This document shows, piece by piece, positions 11,259-62,589 of a DNA stretch of 64,000 bases. Location of the stretch: positions 1-64,000 of IMG/VR virus record IMGVR_UViG_3300008110_000048; one strand, 5' to 3'. Origin of the DNA: a virus. Made by a program: the position numbers and the translations under genes. Numbering within the stretch: position 1 is the first letter of the stretch; every line of letters begins with the position of its first letter. The notes below the pieces were generated by a model that made no database searches, was not told where the DNA came from, and saw only the letters and a program-made list of their open reading frames with translations.

Positions 11259-12179
11259 ATGACTTCCGCAGAATTCCACATTAATGACAATGAAATCCAT
11301 GAAGATGATCATCTTCTTGATGATATTCTTGAAGATCAAACTCATCCTGACGACATTGTTCGTCAAGCGTTTGATTTCTTTCAGTTTAATCAGCGAGTCC
11401 TAAACAAAGACGTTCGCAACATGGAAGTCGATCTTGATCGACGCTCCGCACGCGAACTCGTCTCCCTATATTATGATTTGCAAAAAGCACGACTTGGTTA
11501 CAATAACCAGGTCCGTGACCTGACCAAAGCTGGCAGTCCTCACGAACTGCTTGGCTATTACGCAACTATTATTGAAATGCTAGAGAAGTCACTTGTTGCT
11601 CCTCTTGATCATTTCGGTAATCAGTTCGTAGTCGGTCAGTGGGCCAAGAGCCAGTATGGCATTGGACCAGTTATTACTGCCGGACTCGTTGCTCATATTG
11701 ACATCGAGAAGGCACCGACTGCTGGAGCAATCTGGCGTTACGCCGGTATTGATCCGACCATTAAGTGGGAAAAGGGCCAGAAGCGCCCGTTCAACGCACA
11801 GTTGAAGACTCTCACTTGGAAGATTGGTCAGAGCTTCATGAAGTTCTCCAATAAGGATCAGTGCTTCTACGGCCATCTCTACAAGCAAGACAAGGCACGC
11901 CGTCTTGCCAAGAACGAGGCTGGAGATTATGCAGAATTTGCTAAGCAGATTCTGACCTCCAAGAAGTGGGGCAATAACCCGACTCGTACTTGTCTCGAAT
12001 CAGGCAAGCTTCCGCCTGCCCAGATTGATGCACAAGCACGACGCTTTGCTGCCAAGATCTTCCTGAGCCACTATCACGCAGTGGCATATCAGGCTCATCA
12101 TGGCACACCGTTTGTTGCCGGGGTATATCCAGAAATCTGGGTGTACCTCGGTATACAAATTTTTTATAATAAAATTTAA
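11259..12179 (+). CDS. tasA: stand-alone Tas protein (Nop/IS110-like RNA-binding domain) of a TIGR-Tas system
   Basis: The N terminus (1-35) is acidic. Residues about 55-112 are long helices (RRSARELVSLYYDLQKARLG and on), as in the coiled-coil part of Nop domains. Residues 132-195 carry an IS110-transposase-like helix-hairpin-helix core: YGIGPVITAGLVAHID, WRYAGIDP, then a basic KWEKGQKRPF and TLTWKIGQSFMKF. The last 110 residues are helical and basic. No RuvC (DEDD) or HNH nuclease motif is present, so this is the nuclease-free TasA type rather than TasR or TasH. The stop lies 21 bases before a TIGR-type array, the defining partner. Tas proteins are known to bind about 36-nt tigRNAs and target DNA through two short spacers. 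Without a nuclease, the likely role is RNA-guided DNA binding such as blocking transcription or replication of a competitor or host. Codon use is G/C-ending, unlike the flanks, suggesting strong expression. Confidence 0.85.
   Translation: MTSAEFHINDNEIHEDDHLLDDILEDQTHPDDIVRQAFDFFQFNQRVLNKDVRNMEVDLDRRSARELVSLYYDLQKARLGYNNQVRDLTKAGSPHELLGYYATIIEMLEKSLVAPLDHFGNQFVVGQWAKSQYGIGPVITAGLVAHIDIEKAPTAGAIWRYAGIDPTIKWEKGQKRPFNAQLKTLTWKIGQSFMKFSNKDQCFYGHLYKQDKARRLAKNEAGDYAEFAKQILTSKKWGNNPTRTCLESGKLPPAQIDAQARRFAAKIFLSHYHAVAYQAHHGTPFVAGVYPEIWVYLGIQIFYNKI
12165..12170 (+). promoter_or_regulatory. possible -10 element for the TIGR array
   Basis: TATAAT at 12165-12170 lies inside the last codons of tasA, about 35 bases before the first array repeat, in very AT-rich DNA. 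No -35 hexamer is clear. The array might instead be co-transcribed with tasA. Confidence 0.3.
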
Positions 12180-12200
12180 ATATTTAAATTATCTCGCTCG

Positions 12201-12920
12201 ACTACTATCACCGATACCGAATGAATCACGAAGAGCGATTAGTAACAGTCATAAAGAATGAATCACAAAATTGGATTAGTAACAAAATGCCTGAATGAAT
12301 CAAATTGAGGAATTAGTATCGCAAGCAAATGAATGAATCACCAGTTCAGATTAGTAACATGGGTGCTAAATGAATCATCAAATATGATTAATAACAAATC
12401 GGACGAATGAATTATACTCAATGATTTGTATCACTCACAATAAATGAATCAAGGGTAGAGTATTAGTAACAAAATCAGAGAATGAATTATTTTCCAAGAT
12501 TAGTATCATTGTTGACGAATGAATCAATACCACTGATCACTATCACCGTCGCAGAATGAATCAAAATTTTTAATTAGTAACATCAACCGCGAATGAATCA
12601 AACCCAAAAATAAATATCACACTTCATGAATGAATCACCTTCCATGAACTGTATCAATTGTTCAGAATGAATCACTCTATCCGAATTGTATTATAGCTCT
12701 AGAATGAATCAGCAGTTTTGACTTGTATTAAAACAAGGGAATGAATCAAGTGGAAAAATTAGTAACAGCGTACCCGAATGAATCATCATGAATAATTAGT
12801 AACAAGCAGAAAGAATGAATCACGCAGTACGAATTGTAACATCCCAGTAGAATGAATCAAAAGTGAGTAATTGTAACACTACGAGGCGAATGAACCATAC
12901 AACACTATTGTGTAACATGA
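12201..12920 (+). repeat. TIGR array: 19 units of about 37 bp with dual spacers
   Basis: Unit starts are 12219, 12256, 12293, 12331, 12368, 12405, 12442, 12480, 12517, 12554, 12591, 12628, 12665, 12702, 12739, 12776, 12813, 12850 and 12888. Each unit is GAATGAATCA, a variable 9-mer, ATTAGTAACA (variants such as ATTAGTATCA, AATTGTAACA, ACTTGTATTA), then a variable 8-mer. Fifteen of the eighteen steps are exactly 37 bp; three are 38. A lone degenerate half repeat ACTACTATCA precedes the first unit, and the last repeat has decayed to GAATGAACCA. All 9-mers differ, so this is a stored set of short spacers, not a simple tandem repeat. This matches tandem interspaced guide RNA arrays, which yield about 36-nt RNAs with two spacers. 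The adjacent Tas gene supports it. There is no coding frame through the array. Confidence 0.9.
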
Positions 12921-12996
12921 AGACTAAGTGTTTTTAAAAAATAATAGTTCATACAAAAATCTGAACCTTTTATTTTATTTGGGAGAAATATATATT

Positions 12997-15365: not shown

Positions 15366-17039
15366 ATGTTGCAACTCAGACCATACCAACAAGAAGCTTT
15401 AGATTCTGTTGTATCTTTTTCTGAAAAGGGTATAGTCCGTCAACTTGTTGTCCTCCCTACTGGTGCAGGGAAAACTGTTATCTTTTCCCACCTTCCACAG
15501 TTCAAACAAAAAAGCCTACCTATGCTTGTTCTAGCTCACAGAGAAGAACTTCTTCATCAGGCAAAACAAAAAATATCTTGGTCTAATCCTGATTTAACTG
15601 TAGAGATTGAACAAGGCGAAAACCATGCTGGACATGTAGATGTTGTTGTAGCTAGTGTTCCAACTCTTGGTAGAGCTCAATCAACTCGAATACAAAAGTA
15701 TCCACCTGACTACTTTAATAGCATAGTTATAGATGAGGCACATCATGCAGCGGCTCCTACGTATCGTCGTATCCTGGATTACTTCAATCCGTCGTTTCTA
15801 CTTGGAGTAACAGCTACTCCACAACGTAGTGACAGTGTTCGTCTTACTGATGTTTTTCAAGAAATAGTATATTATAAAACAATTCAAGATCTTATACAAG
15901 ACGGATATCTATCTCCTCTGGTAGGATATAGAATTAAAACAGACACAGATATTTCAGGAGTAGAAACAAATGATGGAGACTACAACCAGTCACAACTTGA
16001 AGATGTTATTGATAATCCTCAGCGCAATGCTACCATTGTTGCTGCTTATAATGATCTGGTCCCTAATGCGAAAGCCCTTGTTTTCGCTGCCGGAGTCAGA
16101 CATGCCCAAAACCTGGCCCTATCCTTTGGGCAAGCGCAAATAACAAATGAGGTAATATTAGGTGTTTCTAGTACAGATGATCGTAGAGATATTCTGGCGC
16201 GTTTTGCTAGCGGTGAAACGCGAGTCCTCATCAATGTTGGAGTTCTTACGGAAGGATTCGACGAACCATCCGTAGAAGCAATTTTACTTGCTAGACCTAC
16301 TAGATCTACTCTGTTATATACCCAAATTGTTGGTAGAGGCACAAGACTATATGAAGGAAAACCTCATTGCACCATTTTAGATTTTGCCGACACCACAAAG
16401 GGTCGCAAACCTATTGGCCTTCCATCTCTTCTCGGTCTACCCCCAGAATTCGATTTACAAGGCCAATCATTAACAGACGTAGCGAATAAATATAAAGAGC
16501 TCGAAGACTATTGTCCAGGTGAAGCCGTTAGGGTATTAGCACCCGATGATATAGAACTAGCTTATAAGCGTATTAATCTTTTTATGCCGCCCCCACCAAA
16601 CGAATTTGTTCAACAATATTCTCGTTTTGTTTGGGCTGAAGTAGCAGAAAATGATTATCATCTTGGTATAGATAATAATAATTCTCTTAGAATATATGTT
16701 GATACTTTAGGAAGATGGACCGTTGAACATAGGCATCGTACATCTGAAGGATTAAAAACTACATTCTTAGGTTATCCTGAAGATATGCGAGATGCTTTTG
16801 TTCGTAGCGACAAATGGATCATGAAAAGATTTGACACAAAGCTTATTGATTCTGATGCAGCTTGGCGATCTGATGGTCCAACTGACGCACAGAAAAAACT
16901 TCTTAAAAGAATTGGTGTTCCCGTTACTTCTGATATGACTAAAGGAACTGCCAGTCAAATTATTTCTAAATATTATGAAGCCAATCCAAGACCTGCTTGG
17001 TTGGATAACAAAATTAAATATTCACGATCTAAGTGGTAA
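15366..17039 (+). CDS. superfamily 2 DNA/RNA helicase (557 aa)
   Basis: ATG follows TTAGGGGGGACATC. Motifs in order: RPYQQEALD (Q-like), LPTGAGKT (Walker A, about 36-43), VLAHREE (Ia), IDEAHH (DEAH-type Walker B, about 122-127), GVTATPQRSD (III), ITNEVILGVSS region, EGFDEPSVEAILLARPT (V) and QIVGRGTRLYEGK (VI). This is the SSL2/RAD25-like SF2 helicase common in phages, probably unwinding DNA in replication, recombination or repair. The C-terminal 120 residues end with a TDAQKKLLKRIGVP-type segment (GPTDAQ...MTKGTASQIIS) found at the end of several phage helicases. ATPase core intact. Confidence 0.9.
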   Translation: MLQLRPYQQEALDSVVSFSEKGIVRQLVVLPTGAGKTVIFSHLPQFKQKSLPMLVLAHREELLHQAKQKISWSNPDLTVEIEQGENHAGHVDVVVASVPTLGRAQSTRIQKYPPDYFNSIVIDEAHHAAAPTYRRILDYFNPSFLLGVTATPQRSDSVRLTDVFQEIVYYKTIQDLIQDGYLSPLVGYRIKTDTDISGVETNDGDYNQSQLEDVIDNPQRNATIVAAYNDLVPNAKALVFAAGVRHAQNLALSFGQAQITNEVILGVSSTDDRRDILARFASGETRVLINVGVLTEGFDEPSVEAILLARPTRSTLLYTQIVGRGTRLYEGKPHCTILDFADTTKGRKPIGLPSLLGLPPEFDLQGQSLTDVANKYKELEDYCPGEAVRVLAPDDIELAYKRINLFMPPPPNEFVQQYSRFVWAEVAENDYHLGIDNNNSLRIYVDTLGRWTVEHRHRTSEGLKTTFLGYPEDMRDAFVRSDKWIMKRFDTKLIDSDAAWRSDGPTDAQKKLLKRIGVPVTSDMTKGTASQIISKYYEANPRPAWLDNKIKYSRSKW

Positions 17040-27737: not shown

Positions 27738-29438
27738 ATGTCCGAACAGCAAACTCTTCCTTTTGATCAGGAAGAAGAAGACTATCTTACTCTAGAAGAT
27801 CTCAATCCTCTTTGGATCACTAACGATGGTCTTCCTACTTTTATCGCTGATAGAGATGATATTTGTGAGTGTGTTGAATCTTTTGGTTTCAATATTTATT
27901 ATTTGATTGCAAACCAAGAAACTGAAATTAAACCAACAAATACATCTGCCCCTAAGTCTGGTACTGTCACTTACAATAACACTAACAAAACTGCTGCTAT
28001 AGCGCCACCTCCTGTTATTGTAAAATCTTCTCAGATCTATAGAGTTGTTAACAACTTTGTTGGTCGTTCCGTATCGGCTGTTCGCCCAGAACTAAGCGCC
28101 GAATTCATCAGTCTTGAAGAAGAGGCTATTTATAATATGCCTCCCATTCCTCATTTGCTTATTGAAAAGCTTGATCAGTTCTTTAGATTGGTCGATGCTC
28201 AGCATGGCACTGAATCTATTGTCATGCTTACTTTTGACCAGGACAAAGAAGGTTCTGATGGTTGGGGAATCTTAGTTCCTGACCAAGTTAATACTTCTGT
28301 TCACTGTAATTATGATCCCGACAGCATTGCTCAGGTGAAGCCTGACAATGTTATTATCGTTGGCTCAGTTCACAGTCATCCAGGAATGAGCGCTTACGCT
28401 TCAGGCACTGATCATGCTGACCAAGCTGACTTCGATGGCATCCATATCACATTTGGTTGGCAGAAGTCTGTCAACAATGGAGCAACTCAGTATTATATCG
28501 AAATGCAGATGGCCGGTAAAGCTTACAAGCTTGATCCAGAAGATGTTTTTGAGGGCTATACCATAGAAAGAGCTCCAGATCCCGAAGTTGTAGGGTGGAC
28601 TGATAAAGTAAAAAAAGTCAGCCCCCCCAATATGGGGGGTACTCGCACGGCCAATCTTGGACAGCCTCATCCACAAACCCAAATTCCTACTCAGCCTACT
28701 ACGGCGGCTGGACCCAATAACACTCAGTTAACTAATTTTGTTAACTATTCACCCCATATTCTTGATATTATAGAGGAAGCAATAGGATATGAACAGCAAG
28801 CTATTCTTGTCTGCGAAGCAAGCTCCACTATTGAAAAAGGCAAATTCTCCTGCCCATCTTGCTTTTCGTATCTCCCTATTAATTCTATCTATGTTGACCA
28901 CTGCTGCGCTATTTGTGATATTCCCTTATGTGAGCCGGACACGCCAGTAGATCAAGTTGTTTACGATGTTGCCGAATATTGCCGTCAAAGAAACATCTCT
29001 CAAGATGTAGCTTTATACATGTTGGGTAAAGATGTTGAAAACAACTATTTGCTACTTAGACTGACTCCAGATCTCATAAGCACCTATCTTGATTCTCAGT
29101 GGAAATCATCTGACATATCTCTCTCAGATGAAAATCTTACACTTTGTTGTAATCAAAAAATCATCGACTGTTACTGTCAAGTGCAAGTAACTAGCTTGGA
29201 TGCTTTTGACTTTGATAATTTTATGGGCAAATTTGACGTTTATGCTTCGCAATCTGAATGCCATAAATGCGAACATTATTACACAACCATGTGCCCAAGA
29301 TATTCATCTACAATAATCAATTTTATATCTTCACCCAAAGACAAAGAGCCGGAAAACTATGCTGATACCATAACTTCCGATGGGTGTAATTTATATTCTG
29401 AATATTTTACAGAAAGAGATATATATGAATCCGAATGA
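27738..29438 (+). CDS. JAB/MPN-domain metallopeptidase with zinc fingers (566 aa)
   Basis: ATG after TTAAGGAGAAATA. Residues about 130-290 contain VGSVHSHPGMSAYASGTDHA, the JAMM zinc signature HxHPx6SxxD, in a beta-rich domain with an upstream Glu-bearing FDQDKEGSDGWGILVP. Such enzymes cut isopeptide or C-terminal extensions of ubiquitin-like proteins. The C-terminal half has cysteine clusters (CPSCFSYL, CCAICDIPLC, CHKCEHYYTTMC) likely binding zinc. It probably processes or removes the Ubl at 30212-30466. The last 14 bases overlap the E1 gene, indicating coupling. Confidence 0.85.
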   Translation: MSEQQTLPFDQEEEDYLTLEDLNPLWITNDGLPTFIADRDDICECVESFGFNIYYLIANQETEIKPTNTSAPKSGTVTYNNTNKTAAIAPPPVIVKSSQIYRVVNNFVGRSVSAVRPELSAEFISLEEEAIYNMPPIPHLLIEKLDQFFRLVDAQHGTESIVMLTFDQDKEGSDGWGILVPDQVNTSVHCNYDPDSIAQVKPDNVIIVGSVHSHPGMSAYASGTDHADQADFDGIHITFGWQKSVNNGATQYYIEMQMAGKAYKLDPEDVFEGYTIERAPDPEVVGWTDKVKKVSPPNMGGTRTANLGQPHPQTQIPTQPTTAAGPNNTQLTNFVNYSPHILDIIEEAIGYEQQAILVCEASSTIEKGKFSCPSCFSYLPINSIYVDHCCAICDIPLCEPDTPVDQVVYDVAEYCRQRNISQDVALYMLGKDVENNYLLLRLTPDLISTYLDSQWKSSDISLSDENLTLCCNQKIIDCYCQVQVTSLDAFDFDNFMGKFDVYASQSECHKCEHYYTTMCPRYSSTIINFISSPKDKEPENYADTITSDGCNLYSEYFTERDIYESE

Positions 29439-30592: not shown

Positions 30593-32197
30593 ATGTTTGA
30601 TAAAATTAAACTCGGATATCCTAACCTTTGGGTTCAGTCATCTGATCCTTCTAGGGTTACCGATATCATTACTTCTACTATTTCTCGAAATTTTTATACT
30701 ATAGATTTTCTCAATGGCTTTTCTAAATTTGTTGATGGCAAATGGAAGCCTATTCTTGTTGAAAATCCTACTTATCCAGAGATGAGCTCAGAAAGTCATA
30801 TTGTAACTTTCGATCCTCAGATAGCTCTTCACTATCTTACTACTGAGAAATCTCTTACTCGTTCTACTTATATTGTAAATATTGCTTCTTCTCCGGCAGA
30901 TGCAATCTCTCCATACTCTTCTATTCTTTCTCACTTCAAGTCTGCTTACCGTTCAGCTTTTTGGTCTGATGATATTGCAGCTATGCCGCTTCAATTTATT
31001 TTCGTTTCTTCTCTTGAGTGCCCTGAGGATTTTCTCCATCTTTTCAATGTTTTAGAGGATTCTATTCCAACACCTCAAGAGCTAGCAACAATAGTCAATC
31101 ATATCAATACCGCTTCTCATGATCGACTTCTTAATAATGTTTCTGTAAAAGATGTTGTCAATGCTGGCATTGGTCTATGTGAGTCGCAGTTTATTGATCT
31201 CTGCTTGATGTCTGTTGTTAATAACTCTACAATTGATCCCAAGTATATTTATGACGTCAAGATGGCAAATATAAAGAAGAATGGTATTCTTGAAATAGTT
31301 AAGCCTGCAATATCTTTTTCTGATATTGGTGGTCTTGATAATATTAAAGATATCATTCGCCGTACTGCCATTCTTCGCAAAGACCAGCAGCGCACTGCTT
31401 CTTTCGGCGTCACTCCAATTAGAAGACTGTTGATGGTTGGCGTTCCTGGTACTGGCAAGTCTGCTATTTGTCAGGCAACCGCCAAAGAGCTTGATCTTGA
31501 TCTTGCTCGTACTGGTATCAGTCAGGTTATGAATTCTTTCATTGGCCAATCGGAGGCTAACATGCGTGCAGTCTTTAAGCAGATTCGCGCTATGTCTCCT
31601 TTGTGCGTTTGGATTGACGAGTTTGGTCGAGATCTTAGTGGTGGCTCCAGCTCTTCCCATGTTGATGGTGGCACCACTGATCGTGTGCATGGAGAGTTCC
31701 TAACTGGTCTTCAGGAATTGCCAGAGGATACTTTCCTTCTTTGTGCAGCTAACTCTCTTGATTCTTTGAGACCAGAGATGTTGCGTGCCGACCGCTTTGA
31801 TAAGATTATGTTTGTTGGTCTTCCTTCTTATGAGGAGCGCAAACACATCTTCCAGATACATCTTTCTAAGATTGATACCGATCACTCTTATGATTACGAC
31901 GCTCTTGCTCAATCCACTCAGTATATGACTGGTGCAGAGATAGTTTCTTTGATTAGAGAGACTAAGTTTTATGTTGTTTCCGATTCCCTTCGCCCAATTG
32001 AAACAAATGATATTCTTACTTATGCTCCAAAGATGAAGAATATTATTTGGATGAAGCACCATGAGACAGTTGTATCTATGTATAAATATGCTCTTGAGCA
32101 GTGGGATTGGGCATCCACAGAACAGATGGATGATGCTATACTAATGCTCTCTAAGACTTCAACGCAAAAGCAACCAGCATCAGTGACATGGAAATAA
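30593..32197 (+). CDS. AAA+ ATPase, unfoldase-like (534 aa)
   Basis: Residues about 240-440 are a classical AAA module: FSDIGGLDNIKDIIRR, MVGVPGTGKSAICQA (Walker A), SPLCVWIDEFGRDL (Walker B), and CAANSLDSLRPEMLRADRFD (sensor 1 and arginine fingers). It resembles Cdc48/FtsH/proteasomal ATPases. The N-terminal 230 residues are unrecognised and could bind substrates. AAA unfoldases work with ubiquitin systems in eukaryotes and archaea, so its place directly after a Ubl cassette is suggestive. A terminator lies between, so co-regulation is not assured. It may instead help replication or assembly. Confidence 0.8.
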   Translation: MFDKIKLGYPNLWVQSSDPSRVTDIITSTISRNFYTIDFLNGFSKFVDGKWKPILVENPTYPEMSSESHIVTFDPQIALHYLTTEKSLTRSTYIVNIASSPADAISPYSSILSHFKSAYRSAFWSDDIAAMPLQFIFVSSLECPEDFLHLFNVLEDSIPTPQELATIVNHINTASHDRLLNNVSVKDVVNAGIGLCESQFIDLCLMSVVNNSTIDPKYIYDVKMANIKKNGILEIVKPAISFSDIGGLDNIKDIIRRTAILRKDQQRTASFGVTPIRRLLMVGVPGTGKSAICQATAKELDLDLARTGISQVMNSFIGQSEANMRAVFKQIRAMSPLCVWIDEFGRDLSGGSSSSHVDGGTTDRVHGEFLTGLQELPEDTFLLCAANSLDSLRPEMLRADRFDKIMFVGLPSYEERKHIFQIHLSKIDTDHSYDYDALAQSTQYMTGAEIVSLIRETKFYVVSDSLRPIETNDILTYAPKMKNIIWMKHHETVVSMYKYALEQWDWASTEQMDDAILMLSKTSTQKQPASVTWK

Positions 32198-58332: not shown

Positions 58333-61300
58333 TTAGTTTGTATATCCATAAAGTTTCCATGTTCCAGAAAGATTGACAGTGCTTGCTCCTAATCTGAAAT
58401 TGTTAAGCTGTATTCCATCATAAGACGATGCCGTTGTATGTTGAACAGTGGATGTATAGTTACCCCATGCCGACGCACAGTGCGCTGAAATAATTGTTCT
58501 ATCTGCAACAAATGGGCGAGATATATCCATAACAATATGAATATCCGAGTTAGATATTCCACCACATACTCCTATGCTTGAATTTTGCCCAGTATAATTG
58601 TCTGCGACTCCGCCAAATGTAAGTCCCTGCATAGCGTAGTAGTAAGCTGTTGCTGCTGCTGTGCCACCAGAAAGCATATTGATATAGAAGAGATAAAAGT
58701 CTCCGCTTGCTGCTTGCAAGTTTGTTAATACAAGACGATAATTATCATAAGTAGACGAAAATATTGACTGCAAGTTGACTACTGTTGCGCCAGAGAATGT
58801 GCCACTTGACAAGTAAACAAGACCAATATCAGCTGTTGTAGCAACAGTTCCAGATTTATTTGGTAAAGTTAATGTTCTGTTTGCGGTCAACGTAGTTGGT
58901 ATAAATTTTGTAGACAATGATCCAGTTCCGCCAGCACGACCGGCCAACTGAATACCATCTTGCGTGGATGCCACACGAATAACTTGAGTTCCAAGAACAT
59001 CGAGCTCAACAGATGGTGAAGAAGTGCCAACACCAACACGATTATTAGTTGCATCAACATAAAGAGTATTTGTATCAACCGTTAAGGCTGCTGCTGTTAG
59101 GCGTGTTCCGTCAAAGGTAAGGTTTGCGCTGCCAGCAGCTGCATTAGAACCATCTTTATAGACAACTTGATTAGCAGAACCAGCTACTGGACCAGTAGCA
59201 CCTTGTGCTCCAGTTGCACCTTGGGGCCCTTGTGGACCTGTTGATCCTTGCGGTCCCATGTCTCCCTGGGGACCTGTAGCACCTTGAGGACCGGTAGCTC
59301 CTTGAGCGCCTGTAGCTCCTTGAGGGCCTGTGGCTCCTTGGGCACCCTGAGGACCGATATCACCTTGTGGGCCAGTGGCGCCTTGAGGGCCAGTGGCGCC
59401 TTGAGGGCCAGTAGCACCTTGAGCACCGGTAGCTCCTTGGGGGCCAGTAGCACCAGTTGAACCTTGAGGACCTGTGTCACCCTGTGGTCCCTGTGGTCCA
59501 GTTGAACCTTGGGGACCAGTATCGCCTTGGGCTCCTGTAGCACCTTGGGCACCAGTAGCACCTTGTGGACCAGTTGCACCCTGTGACCCCGTTTCACCTT
59601 GAGGTCCAATAGAACCTTGTGGTCCCTGTGGACCCACGGAACCCTGTGGACCAACATCTCCTTGAGCGCCAGTAGCACCTTGGGCGCCTGTTGCGCCCTG
59701 AGGACCTGTGGCTCCCTGTGCCCCCTGTGGTCCGGTTGCACCCTGGGCACCTGTAGCACCTTGGGGCCCGACATCTCCTTGTGGGCCAGTTGCACCTTGG
59801 GGACCTGTGGCTCCTTGAGGACCAGTGGCTCCTTGAGGGCCAACAGATCCCTGAGGGCCCTGAGGTCCAGTGTCACCCTGAGGTCCTATTGGACCTTGAG
59901 CGCCTGTTGAACCTTGCGGTCCTGTATCTCCTTGGGCACCTGTGGCTCCCTGAGCTCCAGTAGCACCTTGTGACCCTTGCGCTCCAGTAGCACCTTGAGC
60001 GCCTGTAGCGCCCTGGGGTCCAGTTGCCCCCTGAGAACCCGTTGCACCTTGGGGCCCTTGAGGTCCAACTTGTGTATAGGTAACCTGAACAGCGGTAAAT
60101 ATAATAGAAGGAATTGCTGGTGCTGGAGAAACTGCTGGAAAATAATCAAGTGATATACCAGTATTTGTTGTTTGCCAAAACAACTCAATATAGTCATTAG
60201 CATTGAGGCTTAAGACCAGGTTAACTGTACCTATGGCTCTACCATCTGTTCCGCCATGGCTTTCAACAACGCTCCATCGGCTATCTGAGTCAGGAATATT
60301 AGAACCATTCTTCTTAAACCAGATATTTGCATCATGAATCTGACTATCACTGTTTGCCCATTGGACTGAGAAAGTCAAAGAATATACGCCAGCATAACCG
60401 AAATTAATTCTTGAATTATTAGAAAGTGTTACTCCAAAATTATTAGAATCATAATTATCATAAGTTATTGCATAAGCTGTATTTGCAGCTACTGCGGTTT
60501 GATCTTGATTTGACCAAAATGAACCCCAGTATGCAATTGTTCCACCAGCACCTTGCGGTCCTTGAGCGCCTTGTGGACCAGCACCACCAACATTAACCCA
60601 GTTCATTCCGTCTGTTCCGATAATTATTGAATTGTCTGGATTCGTACCGATTGAGTTCATCATCCAAGATGTACCCGTATTTGCTGTTCCTAGTGAAACA
60701 AAAACATAGTCACCGTTTTGAACTTCTGTACCATCGGTATTGTCAAAGTCGGAGGTACGAGTTAGTCGCCAATATGTAGAGCCGTCGCCAACTGTTGTTA
60801 CAACATAGATACCGTTATGGATTTGGTTAATTTGGTTTTTAACGAGAACTCTGTCGTTGGCAACAACAGTACGTGAGTCAACAACAAGAGCACCAAATGT
60901 TGATGCTTGAAGATACGCGCCATCGCCAGTTCCGTTATTGTCATCAGCAGTACCAGCAGTATATGTAGGAGAGTTGGGAAGGGCTGCATTTGTAGCGGTT
61001 CTTACTGATTCGTGTGAGTTAAGGTTTCCGACTGGGCCTTGTGGCCCTTGTGAACCCTGGACTCCTTGTGCGCCTTGAGAACCAGTAGCTCCTTGCGGTC
61101 CTTGGGCGCCTGTGGCACCCTGTGCACCTGTTGCACCTTGCGGGCCAGTATCTCCTTGTGGGCCCTGTGGCCCCTGAGGACCAGTAGAACCTTGGGGGCC
61201 AGTAGCACCTTGGGGGCCCGTTGCACCTTGAGCTCCCTGTGAGCCAACTGCACCTTGAGGACCCACATCTCCTTGTGGTCCAGTCGAACCCTGTGGTCCA

Positions 61301-62589
61301 GTGTCACCTTGTGCCCCCGTGGCTCCTTGGGCACCAGTAGCTCCCTGGGCACCAGTAGCTCCCTGAGGACCTATATCTCCTTGAGGACCTTGCGGTCCTT
61401 GGGCGCCTGTAGCTCCTTGGGCTCCCGTTGAGCCTTGTGCTCCGGTAGCCCCCTGTGGACCCTGAGCCCCTGTTGCTCCCTGAGGGCCAGTAGCGCCTTG
61501 AGGGCCAACGTCACCCTGTGGACCATCTCCACCAACTGGACCCTGAGCGCCTTGTGCTCCAGTTGAACCCTGAGGTCCAGTGGCACCTTGGGGGCCAGTA
61601 GCGCCTTGTGGGCCTTGCGCGCCTGTGGCACCTTGAGCACCTTGGGGGCCAGTAGCCCCTTGTGAACCAACATCTCCCTGTGCACCTTGTGGTCCAGTTG
61701 CCCCCTGTGGACCAATATCACCCTGTGGTCCTTGTGCTCCAGTTGCCCCTTGTGCTCCCGTAGAACCTTGGGGGCCAGTTGCGCCTTGGGGTCCAGCGTC
61801 TCCTTGTGGACCCGTAGCGCCTTGTGCTCCAGTTGAACCTTGGGGCCCAGTAGCTCCCTGTGCTCCTACTGCCCCTTGCGGGCCTTGAGATCCTGTTGCT
61901 CCTTGTGCACCCTGTGGACCCACATCTCCCTGGGGACCGGTAGAACCTTGTGGCCCAGTAGAACCTTGGGGACCTGTGGCACCTTGGGGGCCAATGTCCC
62001 CCTGTGGCCCTTGTGAACCCTGGGAACCCGTAGCACCTTGGGGGCCTTGTGTACCCTGAGGGCCGGTAGCGCCTTGTGATCCAGTTGCACCTTGGGGGCC
62101 TTGGGCACCTTGGGGGCCCTGTACGCCAGCAAGAATGTCCGTACTGGCACCATTGCCTCCAGTACTTATGTCAATATAAAAACCCCTGGCTGTCCCCCCC
62201 TGCTCAAAAAAACGAAGCCTGTTTTGATAGACATCAATGGTAACACCACCAGTCAGAGTGGTATTTGTAACAGCTTTCTTTAGGAATATTTCACCACCCT
62301 CATCACCAGATGAGTTGTTAGAAATAAGATAGCCTCCAGCAGTTACATTATTGGTAACTGATATAGAGGATGGTAAGCTAATTGCAAAAGAACCAGATGT
62401 TTCAGTTACATTTATTTGATCTGTTGTTCCAGTAATTGCAGTAATTAATTTAGAAGCAACGATAGTATTAGATGCGTTTTTATAAAATATTTTACCGTCT
62501 GCATAATTGATTGCTACTTCACCATGAGTCAGAGCAGAGGGTACGGACGTAGAAGTACCTGAATTTTTTATAACAAGGGTATTGGCCAT
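58333..62589 (-). CDS. collagen-like tail fibre protein (1418 aa)
   Basis: The N terminus ([20 protein letters not shown], then [11 protein letters not shown]) is typical of phage tail fibres. Two long Gly-X-Y blocks follow, mainly GPQ and GAT/GAQ triplets (about residues 154-520 and 840-1135). They are separated by a domain with [20 protein letters not shown] and then a beta-sandwich like C1q/TNF ([20 protein letters not shown]). The C terminus ([38 protein letters not shown]) is again fibre-like and likely receptor-binding. Trimeric collagen-like shafts are expected. Thr at the Y position could carry sugars, given the glycosyltransferase nearby. Confidence 0.9.
59185..60065 (-). repeat. collagen-like repeat block 2 of the fibre gene
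   Basis: DNA repeats with a 9-base-multiple period encoding Gly-X-Y triplets ([15 protein letters not shown]). Such DNA is prone to slippage and can also create long false frames on the other strand. Confidence 0.85.
61025..62130 (-). repeat. collagen-like repeat block 1 of the fibre gene
   Basis: Long uninterrupted Gly-X-Y coding repeat with the same triplets as block 2, plus rare GGD and GVQ variants. The two blocks are similar enough for internal recombination. Confidence 0.85.

What the first reader, a model, noticed from the sequence alone, without database searches (positions are those of the whole stretch)
12201..12920. All array spacers differ and the unit length drifts between 37 and 38
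The 9-mers are all different, so the array holds information rather than being a slipped repeat. Three steps are 38 bp: a 10-base first spacer in the unit at 12442, and 9-base second spacers in the units at 12293 and 12850. The second repeat is looser (ATTAGTAACA, ATTAGTATCA, AATTGTAACA, ACTTGTATTA, ATAAATATCA) than the first. The first half repeat (12201-12210) and the last unit have decayed. This suggests decay at both ends and tolerance of spacer length, and raises the question of which spacer pairs are still active.
Basis: seen in the sequence. Interest (0 to 1): 0.7.

Follow-up and report, generated by a model that had tools for sequence, protein, structure and literature searches.

The report
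Phage TIGR array with TasA protein
The repeat array is a library of 20 two-part guide RNAs beside the gene for the phage protein (TasA) that should use them to find DNA. It belongs to the recently described TIGR-Tas systems, and comparison with a near-identical phage shows the guides are swapped in whole units far faster than the rest of the genome changes.

Summary
The array is real (20 spacer pairs, 12183-12925, + strand). The unit is edge GAATGAATCA (10), spacer A (8), loop RATTAGTAACA (11), spacer B (8), 37 in all. The gene just upstream (11259-12179) is a nuclease-free Nop-domain protein whose best sequence and structure matches in the PDB are TasH and TasR. This is a TIGR-TasA system (Faure et al. 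2025), a known kind, in a 193-kb phage. The 'decayed' start is largely the truncated first edge repeat typical of TIGR arrays. A relative with 98-100% identical flanks shares 9 ordered units (6 substitutions in 333 bases), while all leader-proximal and several interior units differ: the array turns over by whole units, not by drift. Across eight relative groups, A and B travel together across the loop (177/193) but break at edges (88/194). In the experimentally established target geometry I found no self-targets and no excess of targets in 30 Tas-phage records (2.1 Mb); natural targets remain unknown. The window's TasA lost a conserved C-terminal tail to an 81-bp deletion, so this copy may be impaired.

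The parts
11259..12179 (+). tas gene, 306 aa, TasA type (Nop domain, no nuclease domain found)
   Evidence: PDB sequence match TasH E=1.5e-12 and TasR E=3.5e-8; AlphaFold model pLDDT 82.8, Foldseek top 11 all TasH/TasR, then IS621; no Pfam domain
12109..12110 (+). junction of an 81-bp deletion relative to G001: tas C-terminal tail (consensus ...GHxHxIxxPN) and stop lost; the frame now runs into the leader
   Evidence: DNA alignment with G001 and G002, 81 bp measured, tail conserved in the 64-sequence alignment
12110..12182 (+). leader between tas and array, closely conserved in G001 and G002, holding TATAAT at 12165-12170 (promoter role inferred)
   Evidence: alignment; leader pattern found only in G001-G003
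12183..12218 (+). first unit u0: 5'-truncated edge TTTAAATTA (12183-12191), A TCTCGCTC, loop GACTACTATCA, B CCGATACC
   Evidence: sequence; same place in G001 and G002 reads TTTAAATCA
12219..12925 (+). 19 units u1-u19: edge GAATGAATCA, 8-nt A, 11-nt loop RATTAGTAACA, 8-nt B; 37 bp, four of 38 bp counting the last
12219..12367 (+). leader-proximal units u1-u4 (with u0), absent from the relative G001, which has six different ones here
12368..12849 (+). core: u5, u6, u8, u11-13, u15-17 shared in order with G001; u7, u9, u10 and u14 not shared
12888..12945 (+). last unit u19 (edge GAATGAACCA, 12-nt loop) and following TTTTTAAAAAA; no GC-rich terminator found
   Evidence: same last unit in G001

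Best explanation
This is a phage-borne TIGR-TasA system. The array is read from the leader just after tas and cut in the edge repeats into 20 guide RNAs of about 37 nt (tigRNAs), each with two 8-nt spacers. A TasA dimer holds one tigRNA and binds DNA where one strand reads spacer A, a gap of 0-2 bases, then the reverse complement of spacer B. With no nuclease domain, it most likely interferes with a competing mobile element by binding (blocking transcription or replication) rather than cutting. The array is renewed by gain, loss and exchange of whole edge-A-loop-B units, and the tas gene is exchanged between phages. Shown here: the anatomy, the Tas identity, unit-wise turnover, absence of self-targets. 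Inferred from Faure et al. 2025: transcription, processing, DNA binding, geometry. Guess: interference by blocking. The confidence given is for the identity and guide-RNA mode of action; for the interference role alone it is about 0.45.
For: Tas identity by sequence, by fold and by 64 aligned relatives. Dual alternating repeats with 8-nt spacers beside tas in about 60 related loci, mostly of period 36. 5'-truncated first edge shared by relatives. A and B co-inherited across the loop 177/193 versus across the edge 88/194, so the tigRNA unit is the heritable unit. Ordered shared core with replaced leader-end and interior units between phages with 98-100% identical flanks. tas under purifying selection (dN 0.019, dS 0.40). 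Geometry, processing and lack of a target motif from PMC12045711.
Against: No natural target found: known geometry 3 exact and 116 one-mismatch hits against 3/121, 6/113 and 4/96 in control geometries. The window's TasA lacks the conserved C-terminal tail. No clear terminator. No expression data.
Confidence: 0.9

Rival explanations
1. A TIGR array that no longer works in this phage: the 81-bp deletion removed the conserved TasA tail and the array is an ageing remnant.
For: Deletion and read-through into the leader; tail conserved in the alignment; 8-bp leader duplication and weak first loop.
Against: The rest of tas is under purifying selection against G001; most boxes are intact; retained spacers nearly unchanged. 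The deletion could be recent or an assembly error.
Confidence: 0.3
2. The leader-end difference from G001 is one recombination event: a diverged tas plus 5' array half swapped in, rather than stepwise addition of units.
For: tas 91.8% identical inside flanks of 98-100%; divergence runs from tas into the 5' half of the array and fades in the 3' half.
Against: Does not explain the interior and 3' units gained or lost (u7, u9, u10, u14, u18) or array-only divergence in other pairs, where tas is as conserved as the flanks.
Confidence: 0.5
3. TasA uses the array to regulate the phage's own genes.
For: TasA lacks a nuclease, so self-binding would be safe.
Against: No self-site with 0-1 mismatch in the whole 193-kb genome; across all records tested only one one-mismatch self-site in the known geometry, no more than in controls.
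Confidence: 0.05
4. IS110-type transposon with a bridge RNA.
For: PHROG 4285 'transposase' match E=1.6e-38; IS621 among distant fold matches.
Against: No N-terminal DEDD domain matched in Pfam; Tas structures match far better; multi-unit guide array.
Confidence: 0.02

Closest known systems
TIGR-Tas systems, TasA class (Faure et al. 2025, PMC12045711)
   Same: Nop-domain protein next to alternating edge and loop repeats, paired short spacers, truncated first edge, phage genome
   Different: 11-nt loop gives a 37-bp unit instead of 36; window protein lacks the conserved C-terminal tail; no terminator seen
Salicola phage CGphi29 TIGR-TasH
   Same: 8+8-nt spacers (16 nt in all per the paper); the only phage-collection match (30% identity); the TasH chains are the best PDB match
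   Different: TasH carries an HNH nuclease; none found here
IS110 / IS621 bridge-RNA recombinases
   Same: Related Nop-type RNA-binding fold
   Different: Recombinase domain and single bridge RNA; here a solo Nop protein and a guide array
CRISPR-Cas arrays
   Same: Repeats with distinct spacers; related strains share an ordered core and differ at the leader end
   Different: Two alternating 10-11-nt repeats, split 8-nt spacers, no Cas match among the neighbours tested, no known spacer-capture proteins

Membership tests
TIGR-Tas | Two alternating 8-12-nt repeats with short (about 9 nt) spacers | tested here: met
   10- and 11-nt repeats, 8+8 spacers
TIGR-Tas | Adjacent Nop-domain Tas protein | tested here: met
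TIGR-Tas | 5'-truncated first edge; 3'-truncated last edge followed by a rho-independent terminator | tested here: inconclusive
   5' truncated edge met; 3' end degenerate, no terminator found
TIGR-Tas | Processing into ~36-nt tigRNAs bound by Tas | not testable with these tools
   needs RNA data; A+B co-inheritance is consistent
TIGR-Tas | Tandem-spacer targeting of opposite DNA strands | tested here: inconclusive
   no excess of sites in 2.1 Mb of Tas-phage DNA; the true target pool was not available
TasA subclass | No HNH or RuvC nuclease domain | tested here: met
   no Pfam family; model has only the helical Nop-type fold plus a low-confidence N-terminus
IS110 transposase | N-terminal DEDD recombinase domain | tested here: not met
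   no Pfam match
CRISPR-Cas | Cas genes beside a single-repeat array | tested here: not met
   no PADLOC match for the three proteins tested around the array; two alternating repeats

The most novel reading that the evidence does not exclude
TIGR arrays gain new spacer pairs one whole unit at a time, often at the leader end, by a process not involving Cas1/Cas2. Their spacers are not samples of the phage's own DNA: spacer G+C stays near 47% whether the phage genome is 34% or 68% G+C (slope 0.32).
Probability: 0.25. Interest if true: 0.85.

Novelty: new member of a known kind. Interest (0 to 1): 0.55.

Why it matters
Faure et al. left open how TIGR arrays arise, change and what they target. This window and its sister phages give natural allele series in which whole units are gained, lost and exchanged against nearly fixed flanks. 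They make those questions testable: more sister arrays would show whether addition is polar, and the newest units are the best candidates for a target search in the same habitat.

Tried and rejected
Self-targets in the whole 193-kb genome: none at 0-1 mismatch. Cross-targets among Tas phages: control-level. IMG/VR scans in the known geometry: u17 gave 15 hits; u4 gave 107 hits in 38 independent sites against 44 in 28 for the control orientation. 46 of the u4 hits are one conserved site in a gene that reads like a major capsid protein of one phage group; other guides do not match that group at 0-1 mismatch in this geometry, so I treat it as a chance match to an abundant gene. A perfect A-2nt-B match of a G001 unit in sister genomes is in a geometry not known to be used. 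No Rfam family, no PADLOC or Pfam match. Relatives cannot be drawn for virus records. Host not determined.

Full report
What is there. The window is the first 64 kb of a 193,454-base virus record. Downstream of an ORF at 11259-12179 lies an array with edge repeats at 37-38-bp steps from 12219 to 12897. In about 60 arrays of relatives, repeats are mostly 10 nt and spacers 8 nt, giving 36; the extra loop base explains the 37. The 38-bp units carry one extra base beside a repeat; relatives have loops of 10-12 nt too, as expected if only the ends of the loop touch the protein (established for TasR).

The protein. P0001 matches TasH (E=1.5e-12) and TasR (E=3.5e-8) in the PDB by sequence. An AlphaFold model built on 64 relatives has TasH and TasR chains as its eleven best Foldseek matches, followed by IS621. 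Pfam finds no nuclease or DEDD domain, so it is the TasA class. PHROGs labels this family 'transposase', which is best read as an annotation inherited from IS110.

A damaged copy? G001 and G002 tas end in ...APRPYII(E/Q)HGGHVHEIAIPNNPFA, and the motif GHxHxIxxPN is conserved through the family. In the window 81 bp are missing at this point and the frame runs into the leader. Whether this is a natural deletion or an assembly error cannot be told here.

Which units look intact. Departures from the box positions are: edge ending TTA at 12405 and 12480, loop ending TTA at 12665 and 12702, loop ending TCG at 12293, and the last unit at 12888. Several of these (12405, 12480, 12665) are retained with the same departure in G001, so a changed box does not by itself show that a unit is dead.

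Array evolution. G001 (IMGVR_UViG_3300018050_001813) is 98-100% identical on both sides in most 250-bp steps, but tas is only 91.8% identical (dN 0.019, dS 0.40) and the array is far more different: a sharp island from 11.25 to 12.92 kb. Nine units are shared in order with 6 substitutions in 333 bases (3 in 144 spacer bases, 3 in 189 repeat bases). All leader-proximal units differ, and some interior and 3' units are present in only one phage. The high dS of tas points to exchange of the tas allele by recombination, which may have carried the 5' half of the array along. In other close pairs the array alone is hypervariable while tas and flanks agree. Over eight groups, finding A of a unit in a relative predicts its B in 177 of 193 cases, while B predicts the next A in 88 of 194 (pairs are counted in both directions and groups are not independent, so the p-value is only indicative). 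The edge-A-loop-B unit is thus what evolution moves, matching the tigRNA unit found experimentally.

Targets. Faure et al. [quoted passage not shown] from their cut positions one strand reads A then revcomp(B) (my derivation). In this geometry the window array has no self-site with 0-1 mismatch. 615 guides from 30 records against 2.1 Mb gave 3 exact and 116 one-mismatch sites, versus 3/121, 6/113 and 4/96 in the three control geometries. These phages do not target themselves or, detectably, each other. Spacer composition is nearly flat and only weakly tied to genome G+C, so spacers are not random pieces of the phage genome.

Verdict. A TIGR-TasA system, a known kind, new as a member; its value is the natural allele series. 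Shown: anatomy, identity, unit-wise turnover, absence of self-targets. Inferred: transcription, processing, DNA binding. Speculative: interference by blocking.

Noticed in passing
L014 / G006 (IMGVR_UViG_3300042868_009074, 267.8 kb), array at about bases 144-1000: A TIGR array with the same edge and loop motif lies at the record's start, about 215 kb from its only detected Tas gene (215547, 32% identical); may be the two ends of a circular genome or a separated array.
   Followed up: partly
window 12331-12367 (unit u4): A, 1 nt, revcomp B of u4 is exactly conserved in 46 IMG/VR contigs of one phage group, inside a gene reading like a major capsid protein (L182:3340-4509). Not above chance by independent sites, but the best single lead for a target.
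   Followed up: partly
window 30719-30736: G001 unit 8 matches perfectly as A-2nt-B (same strand) at the syntenic site in G000, G001 and G002; geometry not known to be used, probably chance.
   Followed up: partly
30 Tas-phage records: Spacer G+C stays near 47% across phage genomes of 34-68% G+C; G034 spacers are 35% in a 63% genome. Position 1 of spacers is poor in G.
   Followed up: partly
L115:2330-3120 and G010 array: Some relative arrays hold duplicated units or reused half-spacers (same A with different B), suggesting internal duplication and half-unit shuffling.
   Followed up: no
window 58333-62589 (-): 1418-aa ORF with long 18-bp-period repeats (collagen-like), probably a fibre protein.
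   Followed up: no
window 15366-17039 and 27738-29438: ResIII/DEAD-type helicase, and an ORF with a weak JAB-domain match just below the Pfam cut-off.
   Followed up: no
PHROG 4285: This family, labelled 'transposase', appears to be a Tas family.
   Followed up: partly
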